Made by a program: the position numbers and the translations under genes
The notes under the pieces: generated by a model
What the model was told of the DNA's origin: nothing
The model's input: only the letters and a program-made list of their open reading frames with translations
Databases searched by the model: none
Shown here: piece by piece, positions 11,273-31,503 of the stretch
Layout: every line of letters starts with the position of its first letter
How positions within the stretch are numbered: the stretch's first letter is position 1
Virus record (IMG/VR): IMGVR_UViG_3300027721_000051
Location: 1-31,690 of that record
Length of the DNA stretch: 31,690 bases
Source: a virus
Direction: 5' to 3' (one strand)

Positions 11273-12691
11273 ATGGCATTAGGTCAGACACTTAGATATT
11301 ATAGAGGACAATTTAATCCAGAGTCTGCATATCAGCCTTCTGGAGATGGAAGTACTATTATTTCTTTATATAATCCAGAATCTCAAGCAAGGTTTATTGA
11401 AGCTGTTGCTCAAAGACAGGAAAGATTTGATACAGCTAAACTTGCAGAAGCTCAGGAATTAGCTAGAATAGGAGAATTAGAAACTTATGATTTACCAGAG
11501 TTAAATAACAGACTTAAATCTTTTGAAAGTAATATTAATAATTTAGTTAAAACTAAATATAATGGAGACTATGGAGCTGCTGCAAATGAAATAGCCAAGA
11601 TGATTGGAACTGAACGTAGTAATCCTTTCTATCATTTTAATAAACAAAAGGTTGAGATGAGTAAAGCTTATTTAGATGCTAAGATGAAATTAGGTTCTAA
11701 TTTTATGTCTGCTAATAATCCTATGGAAGTAGGATTTCAAGATTGGCAGAAAGGAGCTAAATTCGATTTTACTCCTATTAATAGAGAAGACATTGTAAAA
11801 GATGCTGCTATGGAATTTGGAACATTGGCAGATACAATAATGAGTGATCCTACTTTACAATCAACAGCCGGTGGTCAGTATTTTCTATCTACTATACAAT
11901 CAGGATTAGAAGATCCAAGAGCCGTAAGAGAGTTTATGGAAACTGAAGAAGGTCAGATAATGATACAAAATATTGTTGATAAAAATCCTGAATTATCTAA
12001 ATTAGACAGAGAGCAAGTTATGGGAGCAGTTACTGAAGGTGCTTATAGTGCTATAGGTAAAACTCAAACACAATACTTGCAGAATCAGGATTTTATAAGT
12101 AGAGCAGATTTACTCAAAGCTAGTGGGGAAGTTGAAGATAGTTATTTTAATTTAATGATTCCTACAGGAGCTATGGCTACAAAAAAATATTTTGAAGGCG
12201 TAGATGAGAAAGGGAATAGACTTTCTGCTATCAGATCTTATTCAATAAATAGCACTTCTTCAACAAGAATGACTACTTCTCAAATAAATGAACTTGATAA
12301 TATTAAGAAAAATTTAGGAAGTCAAATTAAATTATTAGCTTTTGGAGATAAACCTAGCGAACTTGTAAACTTCATGAATAAAAAGAGTCGTAAAAATATT
12401 GAACAAATGGATGGCAAAGAACCTGTCGAAATTACAGATGTAGGCTTTAGTCCAAATACCTCTGAGCTTGTTTTAGGAATTACTGGTTATGATAAAGAAG
12501 GAAAGATGCTAGAAGCTGGTTTAGTATTAGATGCAGGTACAGAAGAAACATATCCTAACAATAATCGTATATTAGCTTTAATCCCATATTTGGAAACTTT
12601 AGGAGAACAAGGTTCAGATTTTAATAGAGAATTATATACATGGTTAGCAAGAAACTACCCAAGTATGTATAAACAATATACTAATCAATAA
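11273..12691 (+). CDS. second virion cargo protein (function unknown)
   Basis: A 472-residue protein, helical in its first half. It begins ALGQTLRYYRGQFNPESAYQP and has a long charged helix around residues 45-110 (AQRQERFDTAKLAEAQELARIGELETYDLPELNNRLKSFE). No enzymatic motif or membrane segment is seen. It lies 13 bases after the first cargo gene and 5 bases before the polymerase polyprotein, with tandem TAA-TAG stops. In crAss-like phages the genes between muzzle and virion polymerase encode packaged cargo. By that context this is a partner or chaperone of the ejected complex, or a scaffold for loading the polymerase. I do not recognise it beyond that. Confidence 0.55.
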   Translation: MALGQTLRYYRGQFNPESAYQPSGDGSTIISLYNPESQARFIEAVAQRQERFDTAKLAEAQELARIGELETYDLPELNNRLKSFESNINNLVKTKYNGDYGAAANEIAKMIGTERSNPFYHFNKQKVEMSKAYLDAKMKLGSNFMSANNPMEVGFQDWQKGAKFDFTPINREDIVKDAAMEFGTLADTIMSDPTLQSTAGGQYFLSTIQSGLEDPRAVREFMETEEGQIMIQNIVDKNPELSKLDREQVMGAVTEGAYSAIGKTQTQYLQNQDFISRADLLKASGEVEDSYFNLMIPTGAMATKKYFEGVDEKGNRLSAIRSYSINSTSSTRMTTSQINELDNIKKNLGSQIKLLAFGDKPSELVNFMNKKSRKNIEQMDGKEPVEITDVGFSPNTSELVLGITGYDKEGKMLEAGLVLDAGTEETYPNNNRILALIPYLETLGEQGSDFNRELYTWLARNYPSMYKQYTNQ

Positions 12692-12696
12692 TAGTT

Positions 12697-15600
12697 ATGG
12701 CTCTTTACGAAGAAACAAAGAAAATTCAACAAGAATTAGATAATAAGTACAACCAAGATGATCCACTTAAATACGTATTTACAAAACTAGCAAATGCTAA
12801 TCGTAATTTAAGTGCCACTGGTAAACCCCCCATAGACATAACTCCTACAGAAGATACTGGTATATACTTACCAAGAGACGGAAGAAACTTTGGAAGATTC
12901 TTCGGTGAGGTATATAATCCATTGTCTAACGTGGAAAATGCAGTTGCATCCAGACAATCAGGATGGGAACGTATGGGCTATATGATTCCTAGAATAGGAG
13001 TTAAAGTAGCGTCTGAAGTTGCTCAATTACCAGGGTATCTTGGCGGAGCTGTTGCTTGGGGAGCTACTGGTTTTGATAAAGATCAAATTGGTTTAATGGT
13101 TGATAATTTCTGGCAAAGAGCTATACAAAGTACTGAACAATCTGTTAAAGACGAACTTCCTGTTTATGTAAGTGATAAAGTAAAAGAAGGTGGATTAATG
13201 CGTAATATTTTTTCCACTGCATTCTGGGCTACCGAAGGGGCTGACGGAATAGGATTTTTATTATCTTATTTAGTACCTGGACAAGTACTTAAAGCTACTG
13301 GTTTAGGAGCAAAAGCGGCTAAATTAATAAAACCAGGTAGCAAGATTTCTAAGTTAATGAGCCAAGGAACTACATATGAACAAGCAGTAAAAGCAGCTAC
13401 AAAGGGAATGAAAGAGTCTTTTGATTTTGTAGGAGCTACTGTAATAAATACATTATTTGAATCAGCTGCTGAAGGTGGAGAAACATTTAGAAATGTATTA
13501 GATAAAACCGGAGATAAAGATAAAGCAGCTAATGCGGCTGTTGATGTTGTTAATAAAAACTTTGGTATTTTATTAGCATCTAACGCTGTTGATCAATATT
13601 GGTTATTTAAAGATATTAAAATGTTTAAGAAAGTAGGAGCAGATGCTACTGAAAACTTAACAAAGAAAAGTATATTAGATAGACTTATAGATCCTAAAAC
13701 TAATAAAGTATTATCTGAAGTTAAACAAAAAACTAAGTGGGAAAAAGCAGGAGCTTTAACAAAACAATTATTTGAAGGTATTGGAAAAGAAGGTTTTTAT
13801 GAAGAAGGCTTACAGTTTGCTGCAAGTAAACAAGCAGAACAAGATGTTGAAAATCCTGAAGAAGCTGACAGAGGATTTGTAGATGAGATGATAGATCTTG
13901 CGGATACTTATCTGGAAAACCTTTCTAACACCGATATGCAGAAAAGTATTTTCTTAGGAGGATTATTAGGAGGTGGTATGTCTATGGTTGGATACGCTAG
14001 ACAAGAAGCTGCTGAAAAAAGATTGTTAGAAGGTACTTCTGCAAAATCTCCAAGTCCGTTTGCTAAATTCTTTGGAGCACAAGAACGTAAAGAAACTCCT
14101 GGATTAAAACAACTTTTGGAAAGAAATATGAATGCCTATCATACTAATCTTTCTGATCTTGCTAAAAAAGATAAAGATAATAATCCTGAATTAAATCCAG
14201 ACGGAACATATGTTTGGGACGAAGATAAAATTAAAGAACTTGCGGAAGATAAATTATTAGATTATGCAGAAAAAGAAAAATTAGTTTCTTTTGCAAAATC
14301 AGGAAATATAGAAGGATTTAAATATATTAAAGATAAATTAGACTATCGTTATATGTCTTTATTTATTCAACAAGAAGGTGGAATAAATACATTATTAAAG
14401 CATATTGATGAAATGTCTGAATTAGAAAAAGAATACTTTGCTAAAGAAGGCGTTGAATTTGACTTAGATACTATTAAAAGAGATCTTAAAGAGAAAGCGT
14501 TGAGGTTTCAAGGTATGTATGACAGAGTAGAAAATACTCATGATCTTCTTATGTCTGATATTAAATATGATAAAGATAATAAAGACTTATTTAATAAGTT
14601 TAGTGAGAAAGTTAAAAATAATAAAATTCAAGAAGAAAGAATATCCGCTTTTTCAGATAGTAGAATTAATGCACTTCGTAATGAATTAGCTAATTTAAAA
14701 TATAATGACACTTCTATTCCAATAACATCAGATCAAAATAATCTATCTGATAATCTTATAGAAAGTCTTAATAAATCTTATGATGAACAAAAAAATAATT
14801 TATCAGAAGCTAGTAAAAAACAAGTAGAAAGAACTCTTAAGGACATTGAAGAGCACCAAAAAGAATTAAAAAAATCAAGAGACTTTAGTTCTAAACTATA
14901 TAATAAAACTTGGTTAAATAAAACTTTTAAAGAATATACAGACCGTACTAAAGAAGTAAAACAAACTACTTTAGATGGAAATAAAGCAACAGAAGCTGCT
15001 AAGTTATCTCCTAAATTAAGGGCTTTATATAATAAAGCTGTTATAATGGAAGAACTTAATGATCCTATTAAAGCCGTTGCAAGACATTCTGGAGATGTTC
15101 AAGTTACTTATAAAACTCCTGACGGCAAAACACATAAAATTGTAGGTCAAATTACAGGTGATAATAGTGCAGGTAATTTAACATTAAGATCTACTAAAGA
15201 AGAAGTTAATGGTAAATTACGAAATGTTGATAAAGGAACTATATTCTATATTAATGAAAACGATACTATAGGATTAAATAAAGAACAGTTATCAATTAGT
15301 GATATATCTATTACAAAAGCACCTGAAGATGTTTTAAAAGAACGTAGAAGTACTGTATTACTTGAAGTATTAAAAGATCAACTTGCTGATCAAAAAGAAG
15401 GTATTAGAAATTTTAAAGATAGAGTTTTAATTCAACATGATTATGTTGAAGAATTAAAAGCTAAAGCTAATGAATTAAATAAAATAGAATTAGAAATCCT
15501 AGAACAAACAGGTAGTAAACTTACTTCTAAAGGAACTGCTCGTAAAATATCTGTAAAAGTTGCTCCAGGTTCTTTAGCTGTAAAAGTTGAGAATAGAAAA

Positions 15601-18600
15601 TATGTTGATGTTAAGAAAAGACAATTTCTTAATACAAAAGAATTACAAAGAGAATTAAGAAATGCTACAAGAATACACGAAGAATTAAAACAAGATTTAA
15701 ATACTTGGACTGAGAATAGAAAGAGAGTTACTGATCAGATTAAGAAAGCAAAGGAAGATGGAAATTATTATAAACTTTTTGAAAAAGAAGTAGAAGATTC
15801 TAATAATCAATTACAAGAGGCAAGAAATGGAATTGCTAAAAACCAAGAAATAATTGATAACTCAAATATTTATCTTCAGCGATTAAGGTCTACTCTTAAA
15901 GGTTATTTTACATCTTTTGCTAATGTTTTAGAAATAACTCCAAAACTTATAGTAATTAGGAATAATCCTAATTTAACTCCTCAAGAAATAGAAGAACAGT
16001 CTATAGAATTAATATCTTTAGCTTTATCTTCTATAGAATTAACAGATGAGATGGTAGACTCTCTCGAACTACTTCCTTCTAATTTAGAAAGAATACAAGC
16101 TCTTATACAAGAAACCCAAGCTACAATAAATAATGCAGAAGTTGCTTTAATAGAGAATCAAAGAAAATTAGAAGAATTAAGAGGAATTGTTAAATTATAT
16201 TCTAGTCTTAGTAAAAATTACAGGGATACTTATATAAAATATCTTAGCAATACTTTAGGAGAGGTTAGTGAATTAGTAGATGAAGAAACTAAAAAAGCAG
16301 ACACTCCAGAAGATAATATAGAAGATTTAAGAACTAGAGAAGAAGAGTTTACAAGACAATTTGAAAAAGATGCCAAACATCCTTATATAAATAAAGATTC
16401 TTTCATTGTAACAGGAGGCGATCAAACTGAATTAATGAAGGGAGAACAAAACGATGACTTAGCTCGTTGGTATATATTTGTAAATAAATTAGCACATCAA
16501 AATAAAAACTCAAAGTATGTATTAAGATCTTTTACTATTTCACAAGTAGCTAAGCTTAAAGAAGACGATCCTATAAGGAAAGGACTTAAGTTTTATGCCG
16601 GTAAAATAAAAGGTATTAAACAATATGTAACTTATAATCAATTATTGAATCTTCCTAAGGAAAATCAAGATATAGCAGAAGATGATATTAAAGTAGTTGT
16701 ATATGAGGACGAAAAACCATTATTAGTATCTAAACAAGTTATTGACAGTAGTGAAGGAAAATATTATCTTATATATAATTCTCTATTAAAAGAGGATAAA
16801 AATATTTTTGGGAATAGATTTTCTAAGACAAAAGCAATTGCAGATAGGATTGCTGAAATGAAGTATCCTCAAGATACTGAAGAAGAAAAAGAAATAGCTT
16901 TATCACAAGCTACTGCTTTTGTAGATGAAAAATATGATAAAGACTTTGAAAGTTATTTAAAATTCAGGGAAGATCTGAAAAAAGAATCTTACTATTTTGG
17001 AATCAATTTTATTAATCCGGGTATTAAGAATGATAGTGGAGCTACTGAAATAGAATTAACGGATTACATAGGTGATACCGATGTATCTAGATTAAGAGAC
17101 TCTATATACATTCATAAGATAGGCACAAGAAAGGGTGATAAACGTAATTCTAATTTAAAAAAGACTGATTATGGTCATCGTATTACAAGACAGTTTAGTG
17201 GTGCAGAGCATGGAGTTACTAGTGGATATGCCTATCTGGGATGGGATAATAGGTTTGAATTGATTAAACCAAGGACTATTCAGGATACTGGATCAGTAGA
17301 AGAAGTATTAGGAATTCTAAGATATCTTGCTACTAATCCAAAAGATTATGAAGAAATAGAAAAGTATCTGCATACAATAGTATATATCAATGCTCAAAAT
17401 AAGAAACATAGATTATATTTTTCAAAATTCTATGGCCCTAATAAAACTAAAAGAGGATTCAGAACTTTAATATTTGGAGATAAAGAAATATCTGCACAAG
17501 ATTTAGCTAATGGAGAAAATCTTGAGGATTTACGTGAATTTCTTGCCACTAAGTATTGGAATTTTGATAGTGGATCTATTGATTCTACTTCTTTTACAGA
17601 GTTTAAAGTATCTTGGTCAGATAGAAATGAACCAACTGTTACAAGTACATTATGGGATACTAAAAAAGGAGGGTATGTAGGCTTTTTATTCTCTCAGGAT
17701 AATAGAATACCGAAAGGTACAGTATACGCTAAACCTACAGAAGAATCTCCTTTAGATAGTGTTCGTAATCCTAATTATATTAATCAATCATTATCTTTAA
17801 AAAGTATAGGCACTACTTATAAGAAAGAAAAACCTGTAAGTACTAATAAAACAAATACTGATCCACAAGATAAAAAAGAATCCAAGACTACTAAAAAAGG
17901 TATTAGACCTACTGAACAAGGTGCTGTAGATGCTAAGAAAATTAAATTAGGTAGAAAAGTTAAGGAAGAAGATGTTGAACAAGAAGAAGAAGCTCCTAAA
18001 GTTAAAAAAACTCTTAGACCTAAAAACTTAGGAGTACAAACAGCTCCAGATGCTGCTGAAAATGTTTCAGAACCAATAGCTACCAATGAAAAAATCTATA
18101 AAACTCCACAAGAATTATGGAATAGTTTTACTCCAGAAGGTAAAAAAGCCTATCTTGATAGATTTGGTAAGTCTGAAGAAGAAGTTATGAAGATGGTATT
18201 TCAAGGATACAAATCTAGTTTTGGGTCTATCAATAGGAGTAAAGATCAAAATGAAGCTTATATACAAGAAGAACTTCAAAGTAAGATAGAATGGTTTAAA
18301 AATAAATTTCCACAAATTCCTATTAATGTTATAGAAGATTCTTTAATGAAAGATTCTTGGGGTAGACTTACAAAAGATGGAATTGTTTTAATAAGTGATC
18401 TAGCTGCAGAAGGAACAGTATATCATGAAGCATTTCATACTTATTCATTATTATTTTCTAACGAAGATGAAAGAAAATCATTATATGACGAAGTTCGTAA
18501 GAGATTAAATAAACCAGAATTATCTGATAAACAAGCAGAAGAATTTTTGGCAGAAGAATTTCGTATGTATATGATAAGTCCAAATGAATATAAGTTTAAT

Positions 18601-21600
18601 CAAGAAGATAAAATAGTAAAAAATTGGTTTAATAAAATATTAGATTATATATTAGATATATTAAAAGATTTTGGAATAATAAAATCAGATAAATCAGGAT
18701 TTAGAATAGAAGAAACTTTTAATAAAATTAATGTTGAAAATTCTTTTAGAATAGCAGATGAAACTCTTACAGAAAATATTAATAATCTTAGAGATAATTA
18801 TGATCAATCCCGAACAATAACAGGTCTTACAGAAAAAGAGACTATGTATTTTGTGCAAGATTTTAATTATCAATTTTTTCAAAATTTATTTAATCCTGAA
18901 AGTATATTAAATCCTGAAACTCTTTTTAACTTAGATACTAATCTTCAGGATTTATATAATGTTGTTTATTCTTTCTATGATTTAAATAAAGGTAGTAATC
19001 CTAGCTATGAGAAAATACTTAAAAATTTCGATGAGATAGTAGGCTTACATGGTAAATTCTTAAAACAATATGGAATAACATTACCAAGTAAATTTAAAAC
19101 AACTACTGATAGAATAGAGAATATAACCGAAGAAGATATAGAAGGATTAAATGCTATTGATGAAGATGAAAAAACTAAATCCAAAACTGAATATCAAGAT
19201 AGTATTCAAGTTAATATGGATGAGTTAATAGACAATCCTATTAGAATGTTAATAGCCGGACTTCCTGCTGTTACTTTAGTTAACAATATGATGAAAGCAA
19301 ATCTATCAGAATATCTTACAAAATCAACTACTAAGTATGGAGATATTATGAGAGTATTAAGAGATAATCTCGCTACTCGTACTTCCGTCTCTGAAATGGC
19401 TGATGTTTTAAGATCGTTATCTTCTACTTATCCAGAATTAACTATTTTATTAAATAGACTAGGATTAAATGAAGCATCTGATAGACCAGTAACTACTCAA
19501 CAAGTTGCACTACAAAATCAATTGTATAAGAATTTTGCTTTAAATAAAAATAATCCTATACTTCATAATTATACTCATACAGGTAATAAACATCAATTTA
19601 GTGCTACTGAAGATAACGTAGAAGAAATATTAAGTAATCAATGGATTAATAACGCTAGATTAAATGCAACTACAGATACAGAATCATCATATATATATAG
19701 AAACAAAAGTGGAGATTATTTAATTGATATTAAAACTTTAAAAAGAGATTTAAAATATCATAGTTCGTTAGATAAAATTAAAAGATTAAATACAAGCATT
19801 GATATTCTATCTAGATTAGGTATTAAACTTCCCTTAATAGCAGATGAATCAATTGATAATTATTTATTTTGGCTAGAAGATTCTCTAAATGATATAACAA
19901 AAGATATTTCTATATTTGATTTTTATAATAGAGATGTTGTAAAAGTAAAAAAAGAATTTGATAAATTACTTAAATATGCTAGTAAAAGTTATATAAACAA
20001 TAAGGATTTATCTTATTTTAATCAAGATGGTAATAGAGAATTTTCAGTAACTCTTAATTCTCATTTATCCAATACTGTTAATTTATTAAATACAATATCT
20101 GTTAATAAGAAACTAAATACAATAGATATTCCATCAGAATTAGAATATCTTATGGGTTGGGATAATAATATTGAAAAAGGAAGTTTATTTAATCGTAACT
20201 CAATTTGGTTAGATTACATCAAAGATGGTAAGAAAATAGAATTAGTATTACTAAAAGGATTAATTACTCCTATTGATGGTACTGAAATATCAAAATTGGA
20301 ATTAGGAGATTATAAATCTTTAACTTTTAATTCTTTATTACAAGGAGTTGTTCCATTTTTAAGATCAGCAGACAGAAAATTAGAATATGGCTTTAGAGTA
20401 GGAACAGTTAATTATAATATTAGTAATGAAATTTTTAAAGATACAATGTATAAGTATCTTGAAGATGAATTAGCAACTTCTTTTGCGTTATTATTAGATC
20501 CTTCTAATTGGGGAGGTAGACTTAAAAATTATTCTGAAAAAGCTAAAAGTTTAAGAGTGTTTAGTTTCTTACATGAGGATAATAAAATACCAACATTAGA
20601 AGAATTTGTTAACGATCATATAAGTAATAAATATGAAAGCTTAGATTCTACTGGTAAAACTAAATCTGCTACAGTAACAGAAGCAGATAGAATGGTTAAA
20701 GAATTTATAAAAGTATATAAGAAAAGAATAGACTCTAGTTTTAATAATTATCTAGAAGATTTATATAATACTACTTTAAATTCATTACAAGAAGACGAAC
20801 TTATTGTAAAAGAACAAAGAGGAACTAACTCCAGAGTTGTTAAATATTCTATACCCGGACTAGACCTTGAGGTTTTAGATAAGATAGGAATTAAGACTTC
20901 TAAAATAGATCCTGTTCTTACAGGAGAACAAATGAATAGATTAATTAGAATAGCTACTTATCATTCTTTTGTTGGCAATAACGAACAGTTGAAATTATTT
21001 CTTGGAGATCTTGCTTATTATAGAGATGCCGCTGATTTCCATAAAAGAACAAATGGAGCTACTTCTACAAAATATAATCAAAGAGATGATCTCTTTATAA
21101 GAGAACATTTAAATGAAAATTATAGAAGGTTTGATAATAAAAATAGAACAGATTCTATGGCTATGGTTGTTGTAGAAGATATATATTTTAATAATGAAGA
21201 ACTTTCTAAAATAAATTCTGCATACTCTAAAGCTGATGGTACTGATGCTCAGTCTTGGATAATGTTGGATGAATATCGTGATATTATGTTAAGACATGGA
21301 TTATGGTATCCAAGGCATGAAAAAACATATCAATATGAAATGCAGAAGCTAGCAATAAGACTTATAGATCTTGTTGATAATAAAGGTAAAAAATATAAAA
21401 TTGATATACAAAAAGTAAAAGATCAATTTACTGATCCTAAAGGAACATTTTTTAAACATACTTCTGGGATTATACCAAATAATCCGCAATATAATGGAGT
21501 TGATATTAAAGAATCTTCATTAGTTCCTTTACAGATATTAAAGCCACAAGGGTTTGGACATATTAATAATACTGAATTAGACGGATTAAATGCTACTACT

Positions 21601-24600
21601 TTCTGGAAAACTAGTGCTGCTCCTATCTTTATGAGTGTTATTTCTGAAGACAGTCCTATGTTTGACTTTCTAATTAATATGATGGCTAATCAACAAAGTA
21701 TATTAACGTTCTCTAATTATGGTAGTGGATCAGCTATTAAAGCAGATTTATTAGGAAACGAAGAAGGAAAAATTCAGAAAATATTTGAACAAGATGAATA
21801 TTTTGCTCAAGAATTAAGATATAGAGATTTTGGTATTCAATTAGATATACACGAAGAAAGTGAAGGACAAGTATCTGTTTCATCACAACGTACTAGATTA
21901 GAATTCTTAGATATATTTAATTTAGGAAGTCCTGTTAAAAATGAAGAATTAGTAAAAAATAGGCATGAATATACTACAATTACTAATGAAATAGAAGCAC
22001 AACTTCGTAAAGATTTATTAAAAGAATTAGGAATAGTATATAAAGATAGTAAATATCTATTACCAGAAGATAATAAAGAACAATTTAAAAAGAAATTATT
22101 AGCAGCTTTTGAGAATAGACAAATGCCTTTAAATATTTTAGATGGTATAGAATTGTCTCTTAATCCAAAATTAGGATTAAATATGTTTGATTTATCATTA
22201 AGCAAATTTAAAATTGAAGAGATACTAACCTCTATTGTAAGAAATAGACTTATCAAACGTAAGGTTTTTGGAGAGATGTTAATCCAAGAATCTTCATTTC
22301 TATATGAAAATCCAAACTCAAAAGATAGATTACTGGAGTTTTATCAAAGGACGTTTCCTAATGGAAAGAAAAAAGCACCCGTTATTACTCCTATGCAAGT
22401 TATGATTGCCGTACCAAAGAGTATGTTAGAATACGTAGATTCGATAGGTGGTTTAGATGTTTTAAATAAAGCCTTAGATACTTACTATGAAACAGGAGAT
22501 TCTAGTATTTTAGGAGATGACTTTATAGATTTTTTAAGTATGCCTGCTAATAGAATACCAGGACAATCATTAGGTTCATTAGATATTATACAAGTAAGAA
22601 GATTTTTACCACATTATCATGGAAATAAAGTTGTTATTCCTGCAGAAGCTACTGTAAAAGCTGGTTCTGACTTTGACGTTGATAAATTAACTGTTTATTT
22701 TAATAACTTTTCTTTCAAAGATGGTAAATTTATTTTTAACGAAGATTTAAATTCTATTAATGGTAAACAGAATAGATTAAATATTTTAGCAAAAGATTCG
22801 TTGCTAGATCCAGAAAGATTTGAAGAACTTATTAATCCATTAGATTCAAGTTACTTAAAAAAATCAGCAACATCTATAAGACAAAGAAAAACAAATATTA
22901 CTGATATTGAAGCTAGATCTAATTCACCTGAATTAAAGGATGTTATACATTGGTGGTATAATATGCAGAAAGGATATGAATTTTGGACTAGTAAATCAGG
23001 AGTAGCTGCTGTTGCTGTTCAAAATGCGGCCCATGCTATTGAGCAAAATCATCCTTTGATATTAAACGATGTAATTCCGTTAATGTTTGAAGGACAGGAA
23101 TTAAATCCAGGAGAATACTATAGGTCTGGATTTATTAAAGATTCTTCTGGAAGAAACATATCTAATAATTTTGCAGAGTTTTTAACAGCTTTTGTTGATG
23201 CTGTAAAAGATCCTTTTATATTTGAAATAACCGATACTAATACTTTTTCAGCAATTGCTGCTCTTAATAGATTTGGTAAAGATGCCGGAGTAGGCATTGA
23301 TTCTATTATTGAATTTTATAGTCAGCCCGTAGTTAAAAACTTCATTAAAATTAAAAGAGTTAATTCTGCTCAGTATATGTTTTTTAATCAGTATAATACT
23401 GGTAGAACAAAATGGAAATTTAATCATAGATTAAATAGAAATAAACAATATAGGACTGTTTTACAGACTTTAAAGAATCAACTTAAAGTTACTTCTGATA
23501 TTCCAATATCTTATGACAAAAGTGTAGCAGCTGCTGTAGAAAACTATATACAGACAAGAACAAGAGTATATAATAATAATGAAAAATTAGAACAGTTTAC
23601 AAGTATAGAAAATTCTATAGAGAGAGCCAGAGAATTAAATATTTATACAGATAATGATAGTGAAGTACAAAAAGCTAAGCAAGAAATTTCTGATAGAATA
23701 AATAAATATGGTTATAAATATTTATCCTTACAAGACTTAAAAGACATAAAATCTGGAAATAAAACATTAACTAATGAAGACTTATTTAAATTACAAGTTC
23801 AGATTTTAGATAACTATATGATGTATAGTCAACTTGGTTGGAATCTTGCTACTGTTAATAGCTTTTTAAGACCAGATGCTAGTAGTAGTTTTGGTAGGCA
23901 TTTATCATCGTTAGATGCTAATATTACTGTTACTGATCAAACTATTCGTAAACGTGGTATATTTGATTATAATAGTATTTTATATGCTATTGCGGGAACA
24001 GAAGATAACCCTAGTCTTATAAATGAATTCTTTGAAACAAAACAAAATACCAGTAGTTTTTATTCTTGGGGATCTTTAATTAATTCTAATCCTACTATTA
24101 AGAAGTTTTTTGAAAAAGAAATATATTCTGTATTTGGAGACTCAGATAGAAGGTTATCAAGAGTTAAAATGGAAGGTGCTATAGATACGATAGAAAGTAA
24201 TTTTATATCTTTTCTATTAGTTAAAATGTTTGGAACTATGACTCCTAAAGAATTACAAAAAACCTATAAATCTATTTTTAAAGGTAGAAATTCAATAGCC
24301 AAACAATTACTAAGAGTTAAGAAAGATATCAATGGAAATTTAGCAATTGATGAATTAGAAGCAATTTTATCAAAAAAACTATCACAAAGTCAATCTATAT
24401 CTGAATTAGATACAATATCCTTATTTAGTAAACAATTTGATATTAATCAATGGAATACACTAGAGGCTGATATATATGATTTATATCATAGTAATGAGGA
24501 TAATAAAGCTTTTGTAAATGGATTAATCTATCTTAATTTACTACAATCCGGATATAGAAAGTCTCCTAGTTCATTTTCTGAGATTATTCCTAATAGAATA

Positions 24601-26163
24601 TTTATACCTATGGCGGCTATAGCTTTAAATAAATTTGTATCTTTGCCAGAAGGAGATCAATTAATTCAAATGCAAAGTTTTATACGACAAATGTATAAAA
24701 ATAATGCAAGTAATAAAGATATAGTACCTAGACATAAATTTCCAATTGACTACAACCAAACTTATATTGAAGATAAAAACGGATATTATAAAAACTTTAA
24801 TTTTATCTCTGCAAATATGTATATAGACAGACCAGAAAAATATTGGAACGAAAATCGAAAAGCTCCAATGACTATAGCATTATATGAGAGAGATAAAAAT
24901 AATCCTAATTCCTTTAAACTAATAAGTAAGTTAGGAGGAGAATTTATTGAATATTATCCAGATGCTACAGCAGAAGAGTTAGAAAATCTTTCTATATTAA
25001 ACTCAAATTATTATGAATTTAGTTTAGATAATCCTATTAAAGTAGAAAAAGATAATAGACCATCTAAGAAAAAACAAGTTGTTGAAGAAGACGAAAGTGA
25101 TTATGAAGATAACTCTGATTCATCTAGTCTATACTTCTCAGCACCTCCTAAACAATCAACAAAGAAATATAAGAAAAAATCTATAAACGGATCACAAGAA
25201 TATTATCTTACAGATATTACATATCTTGATAATAAAAATTCATATGTAAGAAATTTGGATAAAATAAGTATGTTACATCCTTTATTAAGAAATATAGAAA
25301 ACAAGAGTTATAATCCTGTAAATGTTGCATTAGCCAGAGCTATTAAGGAAGAAATAAGAATTCCTATTGAATTAGAAATATATGATTCAGAATGGAGGGA
25401 TTCTAATTTATCTCCTTCTAATAGTAGATATAATGGATATACTGTTACTACAACTAAAGGTAAAGCTTTAAAAATAGGTATATATGAACAACTAAGTGAA
25501 CCTAGTTTTGAAACAATATTACTACATGAAGGAGTTCACGCCCTTACTTTATATAAATACAGAACTGATTCTATATTTCATAATCAGATTAATAATTTAT
25601 ATAAACATATAAAGGATTATGTATATTCAAATAAAGCTTTAAAAGATACAGTATCTTTAAAAGTTATTGAAGAATCATTATTATTAAATGAAGAAGAGTT
25701 TATTGCAGAGGCTATATCTGATCCAGAATATCAAAAATTATTAAGTACAATTCCTGCTTATAATGAATCTAATATTAAAGACTTATCCAATTCTGTATTT
25801 AGTCAATTTTTAGATAGAATTTTTAATTTATTACGAGACTTTTTCAGTAGACATCCTGAGTATAATGGAATTTTAACAAAGTCTGCCTTTGAAGAGTTAT
25901 TATCTGTTACTGATGATGCTTTATTAAGAAATAATGTTGATGAATTAGATTTTATTGACGAGATGTCAATGGCAGAAATAGAACAATATAAAAAGAATTA
26001 TAAAGAGGATATTAAGAGTAATAATAATTATGAACTAAATAAAGAGAATGTTGATAATTTTGATATTACTTATCCTGAATATAAACATTTATCCGAAATA
26101 GAAAAAGAAGCTTTCCAAGAAGCAGTTAACAAAGGAGAAATACAATTAGCTTGTGGATTATAA
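12697..26163 (+). CDS. giant virion RNA polymerase polyprotein with two zincin-type metallopeptidase domains
   Basis: A single uninterrupted 4,488-residue frame. Residues 1-450 carry amphipathic or hydrophobic stretches (about 104-126, 182-212, 417-435), suited to envelope contact during ejection. Long coiled-coil-like helices span roughly 880-1070 and beyond. A disordered Lys/Glu linker at about 1705-1795 is followed by HEAFH at 1910-1914, with a downstream EEFLAEEF that could give the third zinc ligand. The polymerase core lies in the C-terminal half: A-G-S-D-F-D-V-D-K has the three aspartates D3325, D3327 and D3329, the Mg-binding DxDxD signature of crAss virion polymerases (phi14:2 gp66 type, double-psi barrels on one chain). 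A second acidic linker (about 4118-4165) precedes HEGVH at 4277-4281, with EEEFIAEAIS downstream. In the family, the polymerase is packed in the virion and transcribes early genes after ejection. Polymerase call sure; the metallopeptidase roles (self-processing or cell entry) are inferred. Confidence 0.88.
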   Translation: MALYEETKKIQQELDNKYNQDDPLKYVFTKLANANRNLSATGKPPIDITPTEDTGIYLPRDGRNFGRFFGEVYNPLSNVENAVASRQSGWERMGYMIPRIGVKVASEVAQLPGYLGGAVAWGATGFDKDQIGLMVDNFWQRAIQSTEQSVKDELPVYVSDKVKEGGLMRNIFSTAFWATEGADGIGFLLSYLVPGQVLKATGLGAKAAKLIKPGSKISKLMSQGTTYEQAVKAATKGMKESFDFVGATVINTLFESAAEGGETFRNVLDKTGDKDKAANAAVDVVNKNFGILLASNAVDQYWLFKDIKMFKKVGADATENLTKKSILDRLIDPKTNKVLSEVKQKTKWEKAGALTKQLFEGIGKEGFYEEGLQFAASKQAEQDVENPEEADRGFVDEMIDLADTYLENLSNTDMQKSIFLGGLLGGGMSMVGYARQEAAEKRLLEGTSAKSPSPFAKFFGAQERKETPGLKQLLERNMNAYHTNLSDLAKKDKDNNPELNPDGTYVWDEDKIKELAEDKLLDYAEKEKLVSFAKSGNIEGFKYIKDKLDYRYMSLFIQQEGGINTLLKHIDEMSELEKEYFAKEGVEFDLDTIKRDLKEKALRFQGMYDRVENTHDLLMSDIKYDKDNKDLFNKFSEKVKNNKIQEERISAFSDSRINALRNELANLKYNDTSIPITSDQNNLSDNLIESLNKSYDEQKNNLSEASKKQVERTLKDIEEHQKELKKSRDFSSKLYNKTWLNKTFKEYTDRTKEVKQTTLDGNKATEAAKLSPKLRALYNKAVIMEELNDPIKAVARHSGDVQVTYKTPDGKTHKIVGQITGDNSAGNLTLRSTKEEVNGKLRNVDKGTIFYINENDTIGLNKEQLSISDISITKAPEDVLKERRSTVLLEVLKDQLADQKEGIRNFKDRVLIQHDYVEELKAKANELNKIELEILEQTGSKLTSKGTARKISVKVAPGSLAVKVENRKYVDVKKRQFLNTKELQRELRNATRIHEELKQDLNTWTENRKRVTDQIKKAKEDGNYYKLFEKEVEDSNNQLQEARNGIAKNQEIIDNSNIYLQRLRSTLKGYFTSFANVLEITPKLIVIRNNPNLTPQEIEEQSIELISLALSSIELTDEMVDSLELLPSNLERIQALIQETQATINNAEVALIENQRKLEELRGIVKLYSSLSKNYRDTYIKYLSNTLGEVSELVDEETKKADTPEDNIEDLRTREEEFTRQFEKDAKHPYINKDSFIVTGGDQTELMKGEQNDDLARWYIFVNKLAHQNKNSKYVLRSFTISQVAKLKEDDPIRKGLKFYAGKIKGIKQYVTYNQLLNLPKENQDIAEDDIKVVVYEDEKPLLVSKQVIDSSEGKYYLIYNSLLKEDKNIFGNRFSKTKAIADRIAEMKYPQDTEEEKEIALSQATAFVDEKYDKDFESYLKFREDLKKESYYFGINFINPGIKNDSGATEIELTDYIGDTDVSRLRDSIYIHKIGTRKGDKRNSNLKKTDYGHRITRQFSGAEHGVTSGYAYLGWDNRFELIKPRTIQDTGSVEEVLGILRYLATNPKDYEEIEKYLHTIVYINAQNKKHRLYFSKFYGPNKTKRGFRTLIFGDKEISAQDLANGENLEDLREFLATKYWNFDSGSIDSTSFTEFKVSWSDRNEPTVTSTLWDTKKGGYVGFLFSQDNRIPKGTVYAKPTEESPLDSVRNPNYINQSLSLKSIGTTYKKEKPVSTNKTNTDPQDKKESKTTKKGIRPTEQGAVDAKKIKLGRKVKEEDVEQEEEAPKVKKTLRPKNLGVQTAPDAAENVSEPIATNEKIYKTPQELWNSFTPEGKKAYLDRFGKSEEEVMKMVFQGYKSSFGSINRSKDQNEAYIQEELQSKIEWFKNKFPQIPINVIEDSLMKDSWGRLTKDGIVLISDLAAEGTVYHEAFHTYSLLFSNEDERKSLYDEVRKRLNKPELSDKQAEEFLAEEFRMYMISPNEYKFNQEDKIVKNWFNKILDYILDILKDFGIIKSDKSGFRIEETFNKINVENSFRIADETLTENINNLRDNYDQSRTITGLTEKETMYFVQDFNYQFFQNLFNPESILNPETLFNLDTNLQDLYNVVYSFYDLNKGSNPSYEKILKNFDEIVGLHGKFLKQYGITLPSKFKTTTDRIENITEEDIEGLNAIDEDEKTKSKTEYQDSIQVNMDELIDNPIRMLIAGLPAVTLVNNMMKANLSEYLTKSTTKYGDIMRVLRDNLATRTSVSEMADVLRSLSSTYPELTILLNRLGLNEASDRPVTTQQVALQNQLYKNFALNKNNPILHNYTHTGNKHQFSATEDNVEEILSNQWINNARLNATTDTESSYIYRNKSGDYLIDIKTLKRDLKYHSSLDKIKRLNTSIDILSRLGIKLPLIADESIDNYLFWLEDSLNDITKDISIFDFYNRDVVKVKKEFDKLLKYASKSYINNKDLSYFNQDGNREFSVTLNSHLSNTVNLLNTISVNKKLNTIDIPSELEYLMGWDNNIEKGSLFNRNSIWLDYIKDGKKIELVLLKGLITPIDGTEISKLELGDYKSLTFNSLLQGVVPFLRSADRKLEYGFRVGTVNYNISNEIFKDTMYKYLEDELATSFALLLDPSNWGGRLKNYSEKAKSLRVFSFLHEDNKIPTLEEFVNDHISNKYESLDSTGKTKSATVTEADRMVKEFIKVYKKRIDSSFNNYLEDLYNTTLNSLQEDELIVKEQRGTNSRVVKYSIPGLDLEVLDKIGIKTSKIDPVLTGEQMNRLIRIATYHSFVGNNEQLKLFLGDLAYYRDAADFHKRTNGATSTKYNQRDDLFIREHLNENYRRFDNKNRTDSMAMVVVEDIYFNNEELSKINSAYSKADGTDAQSWIMLDEYRDIMLRHGLWYPRHEKTYQYEMQKLAIRLIDLVDNKGKKYKIDIQKVKDQFTDPKGTFFKHTSGIIPNNPQYNGVDIKESSLVPLQILKPQGFGHINNTELDGLNATTFWKTSAAPIFMSVISEDSPMFDFLINMMANQQSILTFSNYGSGSAIKADLLGNEEGKIQKIFEQDEYFAQELRYRDFGIQLDIHEESEGQVSVSSQRTRLEFLDIFNLGSPVKNEELVKNRHEYTTITNEIEAQLRKDLLKELGIVYKDSKYLLPEDNKEQFKKKLLAAFENRQMPLNILDGIELSLNPKLGLNMFDLSLSKFKIEEILTSIVRNRLIKRKVFGEMLIQESSFLYENPNSKDRLLEFYQRTFPNGKKKAPVITPMQVMIAVPKSMLEYVDSIGGLDVLNKALDTYYETGDSSILGDDFIDFLSMPANRIPGQSLGSLDIIQVRRFLPHYHGNKVVIPAEATVKAGSDFDVDKLTVYFNNFSFKDGKFIFNEDLNSINGKQNRLNILAKDSLLDPERFEELINPLDSSYLKKSATSIRQRKTNITDIEARSNSPELKDVIHWWYNMQKGYEFWTSKSGVAAVAVQNAAHAIEQNHPLILNDVIPLMFEGQELNPGEYYRSGFIKDSSGRNISNNFAEFLTAFVDAVKDPFIFEITDTNTFSAIAALNRFGKDAGVGIDSIIEFYSQPVVKNFIKIKRVNSAQYMFFNQYNTGRTKWKFNHRLNRNKQYRTVLQTLKNQLKVTSDIPISYDKSVAAAVENYIQTRTRVYNNNEKLEQFTSIENSIERARELNIYTDNDSEVQKAKQEISDRINKYGYKYLSLQDLKDIKSGNKTLTNEDLFKLQVQILDNYMMYSQLGWNLATVNSFLRPDASSSFGRHLSSLDANITVTDQTIRKRGIFDYNSILYAIAGTEDNPSLINEFFETKQNTSSFYSWGSLINSNPTIKKFFEKEIYSVFGDSDRRLSRVKMEGAIDTIESNFISFLLVKMFGTMTPKELQKTYKSIFKGRNSIAKQLLRVKKDINGNLAIDELEAILSKKLSQSQSISELDTISLFSKQFDINQWNTLEADIYDLYHSNEDNKAFVNGLIYLNLLQSGYRKSPSSFSEIIPNRIFIPMAAIALNKFVSLPEGDQLIQMQSFIRQMYKNNASNKDIVPRHKFPIDYNQTYIEDKNGYYKNFNFISANMYIDRPEKYWNENRKAPMTIALYERDKNNPNSFKLISKLGGEFIEYYPDATAEELENLSILNSNYYEFSLDNPIKVEKDNRPSKKKQVVEEDESDYEDNSDSSSLYFSAPPKQSTKKYKKKSINGSQEYYLTDITYLDNKNSYVRNLDKISMLHPLLRNIENKSYNPVNVALARAIKEEIRIPIELEIYDSEWRDSNLSPSNSRYNGYTVTTTKGKALKIGIYEQLSEPSFETILLHEGVHALTLYKYRTDSIFHNQINNLYKHIKDYVYSNKALKDTVSLKVIEESLLLNEEEFIAEAISDPEYQKLLSTIPAYNESNIKDLSNSVFSQFLDRIFNLLRDFFSRHPEYNGILTKSAFEELLSVTDDALLRNNVDELDFIDEMSMAEIEQYKKNYKEDIKSNNNYELNKENVDNFDITYPEYKHLSEIEKEAFQEAVNKGEIQLACGL

Positions 26164-26174: not shown

Positions 26175-29100
26175 ATGGCATGTAGAGAAGTTAATTTAAG
26201 TAAAGAAGAAGTTACCAATATTCTTATAAATAAAGGGATGTTATTTGATATAACTCCTGAAGATAATATAGATGATATCTTAGGAAGGTATAAATACCTT
26301 CAGGATGTTATGGAGTTGCCTTCTGGAGATAATGCAAGATATTCCATATTTGGTCAAGAAATTAAGGAGAGATTTTCTAATATTGCTAAGAAAGCATACG
26401 AAAGTAGAATAGGGTCAACTTTTCTCGAAAGAACTATACAAGAACCTGATTTTATTAGAAAGAAAGATGCTGGTAGTAGAGTTCATGAAATATTAGCAGA
26501 TTTAATGTTAGTAAAATTAGGACAAAAGAAAAAATCGGAAATACTATCTAAAGCAAGAACAGGAGACTATGCTGTATCAGGAGATAATTTAAAAGAGTTA
26601 GAAAACTTAGTTGATGAAGTTTACGAAGATATTCAAAAACTTCAAAAAGAAATAAACCCAGAAGGCAAAGTTACTATATTAGTAGAGCAACGTATATTAG
26701 ACCCTGTTCAGAATAGAGGAGGTACTATGGATATACATGCTATTTTTTCTGATGGAACTGGCCTTATATATGACTATAAGACTACTCATTCTAAAGGAGA
26801 TAACTATCAGTTTGGTCAATTAGTTGATGATTTATTACACGAAAATAAAATAGCTGATAATGAGTTAACTATGGCTGAATATAAAAGAATAGCTATTCAA
26901 AGAATGGGTGTTAAAAAAATAAGGCAAACTCGTCTTATTCCTGTACATTTAAGATTAGCGTTAAAGCCTGAATCAGAATGGAAAGATTTTGATTATAGAA
27001 CTAAAGAAATTGAACTTATAGAAGCCGGAAGTAGAACAGGCAGAGAAAGTGATCAGTTTTTAAAGCCTATTCCAGTAGCAGGAGAAGAAACTAAATATGC
27101 AGGTATTAATGAATTGTTAGAAAGGCAAATGATTCTTCTTAAAAATTTATCGGGTAAATTAGATAAAGATACATTATCTGCTGATGAACGAGATAGAATA
27201 AAAAATAAAATATCAACGTTAAGAAGATCTATAAGAAAAACTTTAACAGATGGCGAAATATATGATATAATTGAATCTGCTACAGAGATTATATCTGAAA
27301 TTAAACAACGTATTCATATTCCTCAGTTTGATGGTAAAGATAAACCAAATTCTCTTTATATAGATAATGAAGAGTTAATAGAATTAATGCAAGAAATAAG
27401 CATCTATACAGATATAATAGAGAACACTTCTATATATTATAGAGATTTACAAAAGGAAGATCCAGAAGAATTTAAAAAACTAAGAAAGGCTATAAGTACT
27501 ATTGCCAGTGATGTTGACATGGCATTAACAGAAGTTAAAGAAGAACTTAATAAAAGAACTTTAGAATCTGTTGTTGATGATGCTAAAGATGAATATGGTA
27601 ATTTAAGACCTATTACTGAATTAGACTTTATGAATAGGAATTTTACCAGGATATCAGAGATAGATCATCCTATATTTAGGTCTGCTTGGCAATTAATACA
27701 AGATAAGTTATTTGAACAACGACAAGAATTAAAAAAGATTTCTGATAATATAGATGAAAAAGATAAAGGTGTTGCTACTTGGGCTAAATCTGTTGGAATA
27801 AGTAAGTTAGATGCTTTCAGAAAAATTATAGATTTTTCAACAGGACATTTAATTAATAAACTTTCTAAAGAGTTATATGATAAAATAGAATCTGCATATA
27901 CTAATCCAGATTTAGAAAAAGGTTATAAAGAGCTTAGAAAATATTTAATGATTAAAGACGAAAAAAAGTTTAAAGAAAACTTTGATCGTAGATTCAAGAA
28001 TTATAAAGAAAGAATTAAATACAAGTATATGGATGATCCTATTAAACAGAAGAAAGCCATAGATACTTGGTACTTAAATAACAATCTTTTAGATTCTGAA
28101 GTTGCTTGGACTAGTAAATATAATAGAAAGTATTTAGTATTCAAACCAGAGGTAGAAGAGAATAATCTATCTAAAGAATACCAAGAGATACAGAATATCA
28201 AGCCTTTATTAGATTATTATAATATGTATAGAAAGTATAATGATGAGTTTAGATCTATATTAGGACTTTCTAATTATAATAAACTTCCTTCTAATTTTAT
28301 AGCCAATATTCGTAAGTCTATGACAGAGAGTATAGTTACTGAAGACATAAAATCAGCTTTTAAATATATTACTACTGAATTCTGGGACTCTTTTAATGTC
28401 AGAGATGAAGATATATTTATATCAGATAGAGATTCTTCAGGAGACTTAAAAAGAACTATTCCTATATTATATTTAAACCCATTACGTAATAAAAATAACG
28501 AAATTGATAATACTAAAAAATCTTATGATTTAAGTAAAAATCTTTTACTTTTCTCAAAGATGGTCTATAATCATAAAAACATGAGTGAAATTGAACCTGT
28601 TATAATAGGAATGAAAGAATTAATGGCTCATCCTACAGCAGATCAAGGCGGTACTCAAGTATTAGATGCAAACGGTAGAAAAGTCTTAGGAAATATTAGA
28701 GAATATGCTATGAAAAAAGGCTTTGACACTGATACATATAGACTTTTTGAAGACCTCATGGATTTTTATTTATATGGTATTAAATTTAAAGCAGATAATT
28801 CATTTGGTAACTCTGCAAGACTAACTAAAATATTATTAAAACTTAAGAATTATTATGCTAAAAAAGCATTATCATTTGCAGTTATTCCAGGAGTCGGTGC
28901 TTATATGGCTGGTAATGTAGCCGGATTTTTTGAAGGCGTTAAAGGTGTCAACTATACAAAACAAAATATATTAGATACCAATAAGAATAAAGTTACAGAT
29001 TTTCATAAGTTTAAAGCGTTATCTTTATTTTTTGATGTATATGCTGAAGATCCTATTAATGTTTTAATGGATGCAAAATCAGCAAATTTTATGACAAGAA

Positions 29101-30314
29101 TAGGAACTACTAGAAATATGTTTTATCCTTTAAGAAAAACAGACGAATTAATTAATGATGAATTAGCTAATAGACTATCTTTAAATTGGGGTATAGATAC
29201 AGAAAATAAATTAGGATTAGGTAAAAATACTTTGATAAGATTAAATCGTCCTGATATAGATACTACAGGAATTAAAAATATTTGGGAATTAACTACTTTG
29301 GATAAGAAGACAGGCAAACTTTCTATAGAAGGAATAATAGATAAAGAGGGTAATATAATAAATAAAGATGCTTATATAGCTTTTAGAAATGCTGTTAAAG
29401 CTACATCTGCAAGTATTATAGGTTCTTTATCACAAGAAGATATTAGTAGAATAGATACTAATCTTTTATATAATTTAATGTTCCAATTTAAAACTTGGAT
29501 GCCTGGTATAATAAAAGAAAGATTTGGTCAAATACGTTATGATGAAAGATTACAATCTGTAAGATGGGGTAGATATAGAGCAGCATTTGCTGAATATGGA
29601 CTATCTTCTAGTGAAATGGACGGAGCTCAGAAAATAAATAATTTCTGGAATCAAATTGCTTTGCCTAATATGGGTAGAATGGTTTTAGATCTTATAACTT
29701 TTGGTATAGCTTTTAAAACAGGACTTGGAGGAGTAAGTAATAAATATACTGATAAATTTGGGAAAACACGTAAAGTTCGTACAAATATAAGAAGAGCTAA
29801 AAGAATGTATTATGATTGGATAATTAAAGATAAGTTAGATCCTAATAAAGTAACTTTTGAAATGTATCTTGAAACTAAAGAAGGACAAATGAGAGCTATG
29901 ATGGTTGAATTAAGAACTATTTTAAGTTTTATGTCAATATTATTATTTTTAGGGGGAGATGGAGATGATGGAGAACCAAGATATATGGCTAATTATTTTA
30001 CTAGACTTATCTTTAAATCAATGGCAAAAGCAAATTCAGAATTAACTTTTGTTTGGAGTCCCGCTCAAATGGCTCAGATTATTAAAAATCCTATTCCTAT
30101 GTCTGCATTATTTACAGATGTAATTAAATTAACAAGTAATACTTTTGATGAAGGAAGAGATATAATATTTGGTGAAAATTCACCATATGATAAATCTCCT
30201 GCATTTTTCTATACTTTACAAATGGCTTACGGAGGAAATCAATTAGCTCGATTCTTAGAGCTATATAAACAATATGAAAAAAATCCATATGTATTATTTG
30301 ATACAGGAAGATAA
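26175..30314 (+). CDS. ejected virion protein with N-terminal PD-(D/E)XK nuclease domain
   Basis: 1,379 residues from ATG 26175 (MACREVNLS), 11 bases after the polyprotein stop. An in-frame TTG at 26151 would overlap that gene and is less likely. A RecB/Cas4-like nuclease fold is readable near the N-terminus: R-V-H104-E105-I-L-A-D helix, then GGTMD186-I-H-A-I-F, then IYD200-Y-K202-TTH, giving the D...DxK metal-binding core. Long charged helices follow (about 300-860). The C-terminal third has hydrophobic stretches at about 897-920, 1170-1185 and 1246-1262, the last followed by GGDGDDGEP. This nuclease-plus-membrane-active layout suggests a protein ejected with the polymerase that acts on DNA at or inside the envelope, for example to degrade host or rival DNA or to process entering phage DNA. 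It is the last gene of the late block, followed directly by a terminator. Confidence 0.75.
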   Translation: MACREVNLSKEEVTNILINKGMLFDITPEDNIDDILGRYKYLQDVMELPSGDNARYSIFGQEIKERFSNIAKKAYESRIGSTFLERTIQEPDFIRKKDAGSRVHEILADLMLVKLGQKKKSEILSKARTGDYAVSGDNLKELENLVDEVYEDIQKLQKEINPEGKVTILVEQRILDPVQNRGGTMDIHAIFSDGTGLIYDYKTTHSKGDNYQFGQLVDDLLHENKIADNELTMAEYKRIAIQRMGVKKIRQTRLIPVHLRLALKPESEWKDFDYRTKEIELIEAGSRTGRESDQFLKPIPVAGEETKYAGINELLERQMILLKNLSGKLDKDTLSADERDRIKNKISTLRRSIRKTLTDGEIYDIIESATEIISEIKQRIHIPQFDGKDKPNSLYIDNEELIELMQEISIYTDIIENTSIYYRDLQKEDPEEFKKLRKAISTIASDVDMALTEVKEELNKRTLESVVDDAKDEYGNLRPITELDFMNRNFTRISEIDHPIFRSAWQLIQDKLFEQRQELKKISDNIDEKDKGVATWAKSVGISKLDAFRKIIDFSTGHLINKLSKELYDKIESAYTNPDLEKGYKELRKYLMIKDEKKFKENFDRRFKNYKERIKYKYMDDPIKQKKAIDTWYLNNNLLDSEVAWTSKYNRKYLVFKPEVEENNLSKEYQEIQNIKPLLDYYNMYRKYNDEFRSILGLSNYNKLPSNFIANIRKSMTESIVTEDIKSAFKYITTEFWDSFNVRDEDIFISDRDSSGDLKRTIPILYLNPLRNKNNEIDNTKKSYDLSKNLLLFSKMVYNHKNMSEIEPVIIGMKELMAHPTADQGGTQVLDANGRKVLGNIREYAMKKGFDTDTYRLFEDLMDFYLYGIKFKADNSFGNSARLTKILLKLKNYYAKKALSFAVIPGVGAYMAGNVAGFFEGVKGVNYTKQNILDTNKNKVTDFHKFKALSLFFDVYAEDPINVLMDAKSANFMTRIGTTRNMFYPLRKTDELINDELANRLSLNWGIDTENKLGLGKNTLIRLNRPDIDTTGIKNIWELTTLDKKTGKLSIEGIIDKEGNIINKDAYIAFRNAVKATSASIIGSLSQEDISRIDTNLLYNLMFQFKTWMPGIIKERFGQIRYDERLQSVRWGRYRAAFAEYGLSSSEMDGAQKINNFWNQIALPNMGRMVLDLITFGIAFKTGLGGVSNKYTDKFGKTRKVRTNIRRAKRMYYDWIIKDKLDPNKVTFEMYLETKEGQMRAMMVELRTILSFMSILLFLGGDGDDGEPRYMANYFTRLIFKSMAKANSELTFVWSPAQMAQIIKNPIPMSALFTDVIKLTSNTFDEGRDIIFGENSPYDKSPAFFYTLQMAYGGNQLARFLELYKQYEKNPYVLFDTGR

Positions 30315-31398: not shown

Positions 31399-31424
31399 TT
31401 TTATTTATTAAATTGATAAATTTG

Positions 31425-31498
31425 GGTGGAAGATGAGCTTCGATCTCATTACCTTCTGATCCACAGTCAGATGCTCTACCAATTGAGCTACAACCACC
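31425..31498 (-). tRNA. tRNA-His (GTG), with two U-U mismatches in the acceptor stem
   Basis: A cloverleaf can be folded: G-1 and GTGGTTG acceptor, GCTC/GAGC D stem, TCTGA-CTGTGGA-TCAGA anticodon arm with anticodon GTG, and ATGAG-ATCGAAG-CTCAT T arm. The extra 5' G (31498) faces C73, the histidine identity pair. The acceptor 3' side, CTTCCAC, leaves positions 5-68 and 6-67 as U-U. The T loop lacks T54 (A instead). CCA is not encoded in full. It reads His codons CAC/CAT. Confidence 0.85.
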
Positions 31499-31503
31499 GT
31501 TTG

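What the first reader, a model, noticed from the sequence alone, without database searches (positions are those of the whole stretch)
12697..26163. One 4,488-residue polyprotein joins a virion RNA polymerase with two separate HExxH metallopeptidase motifs
HEAFH (residues 1910-1914) and HEGVH (4277-4281) each have an acidic, E-rich helix 35-60 residues downstream (EEFLAEEF; EEEFIAEA), as in zincins. Each sits about 110 residues after a long disordered Lys/Glu/Ser linker (about 1705-1795 and 4118-4165). The same linker-then-peptidase layout twice, flanking the polymerase core with DFDVD at 3325-3329, suggests a polyprotein cut at the linkers by its own peptidases. The cuts would release an N-terminal ejection part, a middle polymerase part and a C-terminal part. 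Alternatively the peptidases may open the host envelope during ejection.
Basis: partly seen in the sequence, partly recalled or inferred. Interest (0 to 1): 0.68.

Follow-up and report, generated by a model that had tools for sequence, protein, structure and literature searches.

The report
Two peptidase domains in crAss polymerase polyprotein
A giant protein of a crAss-like phage, carried in the virus particle to start transcription in the host, contains two probable zinc-peptidase domains beside its RNA polymerase; they look real and widely conserved, but nothing shows that they cut the giant protein, and several facts argue against that being their main conserved job.

Summary
The 4,488-aa ORF is a Crassvirales gp47-like protein fused to the virion RNA polymerase (DFDVD 3325-3329). 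HEAFH (1910) and HEGVH (4277) mark two real, mutually related domains. Zincin-1 sits at the gp47/RNAP boundary in nearly all sampled relatives, with H, E, H and E1949 invariant. Zincin-2 (likely third ligand E4334) lies at the start of the next gene in nine relatives. A profile of non-crAss viral zincins finds it at E 4e-17; that family includes ejectosome proteins and the zincin of phage N4's unrelated giant virion RNA polymerase. Self-cutting of the polyprotein is not shown. Zincin-1 stays intact where gp47 and RNAP are separate genes; one relative fuses RNAP to the next subunit without a zincin; N4 vRNAP is packaged uncut; the linker layout is not conserved. I favour an ejected-cargo peptidase acting during or after delivery. 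New here: the paired layout, the shifting gene boundary and the link to N4 and ejectosome proteins.

The parts
12697..26163 (+). giant ORF: gp47-like part + zincin-1 + virion RNA polymerase + zincin-2 (4,488 aa)
12697..17784 (+). gp47-like/phi14:2 gp67-like N-terminal part (residues 1-1696); residues 68-578 match phi14:2 gp67
   Evidence: tblastn E 1e-24; blastp 8.6e-42
17785..18072 (+). Lys/Glu-rich linker 1 (residues 1697-1792)
   Evidence: TOP-IDP peak above 2.5 sd; not significant across relatives
18145..18732 (+). zincin-1 domain (residues 1817-2012)
   Evidence: leave-one-out HMM 5.7e-33; model mbc972e1e3399
18424..18438 (+). HEAFH of zincin-1 (residues 1910-1914)
   Evidence: H, E, H invariant in A1 (19 sequences) and A3 (A3 was collected with a DNA pattern for YHEAFH, so only A1 counts as a test)
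18541..18543 (+). E1949, likely third zinc ligand of zincin-1
   Evidence: invariant in 19 sequences and in 65
18991..25047 (+). virion RNA polymerase part (about residues 2099-4117)
   Evidence: hhalign of fused against separate RNAP genes, prob 100, E 2.8e-64, starting about residue 2099; tblastn/blastp to Crassvirales RNAPs
22669..22683 (+). DFDVD catalytic motif (residues 3325-3329)
25048..25191 (+). Lys/Ser-rich linker 2 (residues 4118-4165)
25273..25911 (+). zincin-2 domain (residues 4193-4405)
   Evidence: HMM without the window 6e-18, without any crAss sequence 4.4e-17; model m8fafdac5911a
25525..25539 (+). HEGVH of zincin-2 (residues 4277-4281)
   Evidence: H, E, H invariant in A4 and A6, N4 vRNAP included
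25696..25698 (+). E4334, likely third zinc ligand of zincin-2
   Evidence: invariant in A6 including N4 vRNAP; above 90% in A4
26175..30314 (+). third RNAP-block protein (gp49/phi14:2 gp65-like, 1,379 aa); carries zincin-2 near its start in several relatives, not here
   Evidence: blastp to cr108 2.4e-71 and crAss001 gp49 2e-8
11273..12691 (+). cargo protein 2 (crAss001 gp46 family)
   Evidence: Pfam crAss_CARGO2 1.1e-10
8356..11259 (+). ORF in the place of cargo protein 1 (967 aa)
   Evidence: position between the stabilisation-type protein and cargo 2, as gp45 in crAss001; no direct homology shown
30610..31398 (-). papain-family cysteine peptidase with Cys/His/Asn, a possible alternative protease
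   Evidence: Pfam Peptidase_C1 1.3e-15, sequence

Best explanation
The giant ORF is the fused cargo polypeptide of a crAss-like phage: an ejection-associated gp47-like part followed by the virion RNA polymerase. Both zincins are probably active zinc peptidases that belong to the set of proteins ejected with the DNA. Shown: homology, position, conserved zinc-site residues, fold topology in models. Inferred: that they are packaged, ejected and fold again in the cell, and there act during or after delivery, either on the ejected chain itself and its partner subunits (freeing or de-repressing the polymerase) or on a host protein. Cutting before packaging is not needed to explain their conservation.
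For: Zincin-1 is present at the same boundary whether the genes are fused or separate. Zincin-2 is at the C-terminus of the RNAP ORF here, near the N-terminus of the next ORF in phi14:2, cr10, cr4, cr1, cr273, cr7, Dulem42, cr114 and MT835560, and a zincin-2-type domain ends the gp47-like protein in Rudgehvirus jaberico. Zincin-2 relatives sit in capsid-internal ejected proteins: internal virion protein 9sfn E 9e-21, PhiM1 gp48 2.7e-13, gp10 23sg 1e-11, N4 vRNAP 3.6e-4 (the crAss-only profile alone gives 1.4e-5 for gp10 and 2.7e-4 for gp48); 28 of 42 members match the PHROG named virion RNA polymerase. crAss001 gp47, gp49 and gp50 are in virions by mass spectrometry (PMC10172136). In N4 the C-terminal part that begins with the zincin restrains the polymerase (PMC12633501).
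Against: No activity, zinc content or substrate is known for any of these domains. The gp47-RNAP fusion is very common in Crassvirales and zincin-1 sits at that junction, which is also what a self-cutting polyprotein predicts. phi14:2 lacks a recognisable zincin-1 and crAss001 lacks zincin-2, so neither is universally needed.
Confidence: 0.5

Rival explanations
1. Polyprotein processing before or during packaging: zincin-1 (and zincin-2) cut at the linkers so that virions hold separate gp47-like, RNAP and small C-terminal pieces.
For: Zincins lie at subunit boundaries; the strongest disorder peaks of the chain precede both; phage P1 DdrB with a C-terminal zincin is cleaved before packaging, as reviewed in PMC5512222.
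Against: Zincin-1 conserved in split-gene phages; RNAP-gp49 fusion without zincin in R. jaberico; N4 vRNAP packaged unprocessed; linker layout not conserved.
Confidence: 0.22
2. The zincins are injected effectors that cleave a host protein (defence, envelope or transcription factor).
For: The fold matches effector-type zincins (PPEP, anthrax LF, IrrE); related domains occur in DarB-like antirestriction and internal virion proteins; proposed for polyvalent proteins in PMC5512222.
Against: Fixed position at RNAP subunit boundaries suggests a link with the polymerase or ejection rather than a free effector; no substrate known.
Confidence: 0.18
3. Structural domains or hinges that kept a zinc site but do no proteolysis.
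For: Recombinant full-length N4 vRNAP showed no degradation (PMC12633501) although its HELVH at 2228 is intact in sequence.
Against: The general-base Glu of HExxH is invariant along with the ligands, more than a structural zinc site needs.
Confidence: 0.1

Closest known systems
Crassvirales virion RNA polymerase block (crAss001 gp47/gp49/gp50; phi14:2 gp65/gp66/gp67)
   Same: gene order after the cargo proteins, DFDxD motif, sequence homology of all three parts; zincin-1 also in crAss001 gp47
   Different: gp47-like and RNAP parts are one ORF (as in many Suoliviridae); zincin-2 is attached to the RNAP ORF instead of the next ORF
N4 (Schitoviridae) virion RNA polymerase gp50
   Same: giant ejected vRNAP with low-complexity linker and a homologous zincin directly after the polymerase
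   Different: polymerase core is T7-like, not the crAss type; one HExxH only (HELVH 2228); no detectable homology between N4 C2 and the gp49/gp65 family
Podophage ejectosome / internal virion proteins (PhiM1 gp48, PDB 9sfn, 23sg gp10)
   Same: zincin-2-type domain; HExxH kept in gp10 and gp48
   Different: no polymerase
Polyvalent proteins with zincin-like MPTases (Iyer et al. 2017, PMC5512222)
   Same: multidomain injected proteins with one or more zincins, processing proposed
   Different: crAss-like phages are not mentioned in that paper
Rudgehvirus jaberico record NC_091965 (annotation note 'ZnMc_tr')
   Same: gp47-like protein ending in a zincin; 34% identity to window zincin-2
   Different: zincin-2-type domain in the zincin-1 position; RNAP fused to gp49-like part

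Membership tests
zincin metallopeptidase superfamily | HExxH on one helix and a downstream Glu on the next, both conserved | tested here: met
   zincin-1 H/E/H + E1949; zincin-2 H/E/H + E4334
zincin metallopeptidase superfamily | zincin fold (helix, three-stranded sheet, two helices) | tested here: inconclusive
   AF2 models have this topology; best structural rows are zincins (IrrE Z 7.6, PPEP-3 7.0, LF 6.9 for zincin-1; LF 5.6 for zincin-2), but all Z under 8 and Foldseek E not significant
zincin metallopeptidase superfamily | binds zinc and cuts peptides | not testable with these tools
   needs purified protein; ligand distances could not be measured because model coordinates are not given
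Crassvirales virion RNA polymerase | DFDxD motif and sequence homology to phi14:2 gp66 / crAss001 gp50 | tested here: met
Crassvirales virion RNA polymerase | two double-psi beta barrels in one chain | not tested
   polymerase part was not modelled
N4-type virion RNA polymerase | T7-like polymerase core | tested here: not met
   core is homologous to the crAss-type RNAP; no significant blastp match to N4 vRNAP
N4-type virion RNA polymerase | zincin domain C-terminal to the polymerase | tested here: met
   zincin-2 and the N4 zincin are found by the same profile and align with invariant H/E/H/E
self-cleaving polyprotein | mature products cut by its own peptidase | not testable with these tools
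   no proteomic data for this phage
self-cleaving polyprotein | peptidase kept only where products are fused (prediction of a pure self-cutting role) | tested here: not met
   zincin-1 intact in crAss001, cr128, cr85, Dulem41 with separate genes

The most novel reading that the evidence does not exclude
Two unrelated kinds of virion RNA polymerase (crAss-type and N4 T7-like) each took up the same family of ejection-associated zincin next to the polymerase, because the peptidase is what turns an ejected, restrained giant chain into a working polymerase inside the host; in crAss-like phages this has become a paired system, one zincin at each subunit boundary.
Probability: 0.25. Interest if true: 0.8.

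Novelty: new variant of a known kind. Interest (0 to 1): 0.5.

Why it matters
How giant virion proteins pass a narrow tail and become active polymerases is an open question. A conserved peptidase next to two unrelated virion polymerases, and in ejectosome proteins, gives a testable handle: change one glutamate and look at virion and post-infection N-termini and at early transcription. crAss-like phages are among the most abundant viruses of the human gut.

Tried and rejected
Scans of the whole protein with PHROGs gave no hit and with Pfam only a sub-threshold DUF3201; NCBIfam had nothing for either zincin. The search for related loci with the window domains gave 0 and 1 loci, and A1/A2 were too divergent for it, so DNA patterns were used. 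Foldseek against PDB alone was uninformative. Homology between N4 C2 and the gp49/gp65 family: none detected (the N4 C2 set held only two sequences, so a weak test). A frameshift joining the giant ORF to the next ORF: not pursued, the next ORF has its own ATG 11 bases after the stop. The HEGMH of cr56 was first counted as zincin-2 and then dropped because its score came from its own training. A first leave-one-out search for zincin-2 with default HMMER filters missed the window; without filters it is found at 4.4e-11. Lone HExxH such as HELNH in Dulem41 were not counted as support. The linker-then-zincin layout was tested as a general rule and rejected. Two main crAss papers (Yutin 2018; Drobysheva 2021) are not held, so earlier mention of the zincin there could not be excluded.

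Full report
What the window is. The window is a complete IMG/VR record of 31,690 bases. It carries part of the structural and transcription blocks of a crAss-like phage: a tail stabilisation-type protein (3869-8287, PHROG hit 3e-119), a 967-aa ORF in the place of cargo protein 1, cargo protein 2 (11273-12691, Pfam crAss_CARGO2 1.1e-10), the giant ORF, and a 1,379-aa gp49/gp65-like protein. The order matches crAss001 (gp44 to gp50). The giant ORF is therefore gp47-like plus gp50-like (RNA polymerase) in one reading frame. Such fusions are ordinary in the order: sampled Suoliviridae and relatives have ORFs of 4,148 to 5,794 aa with the same layout, and a review gives giant RNAP ORFs of up to about 6,000 aa (PMC10136315).

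Observation. All stated motifs are at the stated residues. Two or more HExxH are expected by chance in about 0.1% of such proteins.

Zincin-1. The HEAFH domain has tblastn relatives in 64 phage records; those named are Crassvirales or unclassified crAss-like phages, crAss001 gp47 among them. In 19 aligned members H, E, H and the Glu corresponding to E1949 are invariant. A leave-one-out HMM finds the window domain at E 5.7e-33. Most sampled genomes were chosen because they match this domain, so its presence in them is partly built in; of those fetched for other reasons, cr52, cr56 and cr273 (chosen by the RNAP) have it and phi14:2 does not. Motif invariance within that set is built in by the pattern; the Glu is not. 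In crAss001, cr128, cr85 and Dulem41 the RNAP is a separate gene, and the gp47-like gene ends 147-363 aa after the motif. Homology to separate RNAP genes starts at about window residue 2099, 190 residues after the motif. So zincin-1 marks the end of the gp47-like module.

Zincin-2. The HEGVH domain matches, by an HMM made without any crAss sequence, at E 4.4e-17. In nine relatives the equivalent domain lies near the N-terminus of the next ORF: phi14:2 gp65, cr10 (two copies), cr4, cr1, cr273, cr7, Dulem42, cr114, MT835560. In the window it lies at the C-terminus of the RNAP ORF. The gene boundary thus floats around the domain. Other records put a zincin-2-type domain upstream of zincin-1 in a 6,060-aa frame (G023) or in a gp47-like ORF (G027). 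crAss001, cr50, cr113, cr118, cr128 and cr85 have no HExxH in the third protein.

Relation of the two. Profile-profile comparison links them (A3 against A4: probability 95.7, E 9e-9; A1 against A2: probability 80), and the zincin-2 profile cross-hits zincin-1 in three records.

Wider family. The broad zincin-2 profile finds in PDB: an internal virion protein (9sfn, 9e-21), PhiM1 tetrameric ejection protein gp48 (2.7e-13), gp10 (23sg, 1e-11), anthrax lethal factor (5e-5) and N4 virion RNA polymerase (3.6e-4, residues 2150-2332). The crAss-only profile already reaches gp10 and gp48. In alignment with N4 vRNAP the four zinc-site residues are invariant. The N4 polymerase core is T7-like, unlike the crAss type, so the association of this zincin family with a virion RNA polymerase arose in two unrelated polymerase contexts, or was passed between them.

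Structure. AlphaFold2 models on alignments of 65 and 42 sequences have mean pLDDT 77 with cores above 90 and zincin topology. The second-look aligner lists zincins at the top for both, but with Z under 8; the fold is supported mainly by sequence profiles plus topology.

Mechanism. Four facts weigh against self-cutting as the conserved role: zincin-1 keeps its residues where nothing is fused; R. jaberico fuses RNAP to the gp49-like part without a zincin between; N4 vRNAP is packaged unprocessed (PMC5512222) and the recombinant protein shows no degradation (PMC12633501); and the disordered-linker layout is strong in the window but weak before zincin-1 and absent before zincin-2 in relatives. In crAss001 virions bands near 150, 270 and above 300 kDa were reported and gp47, gp49, gp50 detected (PMC6235969), compatible with near full-length proteins, though a cut near the C-terminus of gp47 would not be resolved. 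The shared feature of the family is residence in capsid-internal proteins ejected into the host. A papain-family protease on the opposite strand (30610-31398) is another candidate for any processing.

Known or new. Zincins fused to N4-like vRNAPs, and processing as their role, were proposed in 2017 (PMC5512222). Giant crAss RNAP ORFs are known. Main texts on crAss phages that could be searched do not mention a metallopeptidase in this block, but one record annotates it and two key papers could not be read. New here: the pair flanking the polymerase, the moving gene boundary, the invariant third ligands, and the link of crAss zincin-2 to N4 vRNAP and ejectosome proteins.

Noticed in passing
window 30610-31398 (-): Papain-family cysteine peptidase with Cys, His and Asn in place and a hydrophobic C-terminal tail, directly downstream of the RNAP block and convergent to it, next to three tRNAs.
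   Followed up: partly
L006 28375-28693 (cr108_1, NC_055878): A group I intron (RF00028, 80 bits) interrupts the RNAP gene inside the codons of the catalytic DFDxD motif; the record annotates two separate proteins.
   Followed up: yes
L036, L051, L079, L093, L095, L097, L104, L111, L112, L116, L133, L143: Viral contigs with a zincin-1 domain in a giant ORF but no DFDxD[KRG] motif in about 2,000 or more residues downstream; could be variant polymerases or other cargo proteins.
   Followed up: no
L277 20071-32367 (Rudgehvirus jaberico): RNAP (DFDID 1462) fused to the gp49-like subunit in one 4,098-aa ORF, with no zincin between.
   Followed up: partly
L010 36377-39988 (cr10_1): Two tandem zincin-2 domains (HEIVH 565, HEIAH 806) in the third RNAP-block ORF; this ORF runs off the record's end and is not annotated in it.
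   Followed up: no
window 31424-31656 (-): Three tRNA genes (His, Glu, Pro) in a row.
   Followed up: no
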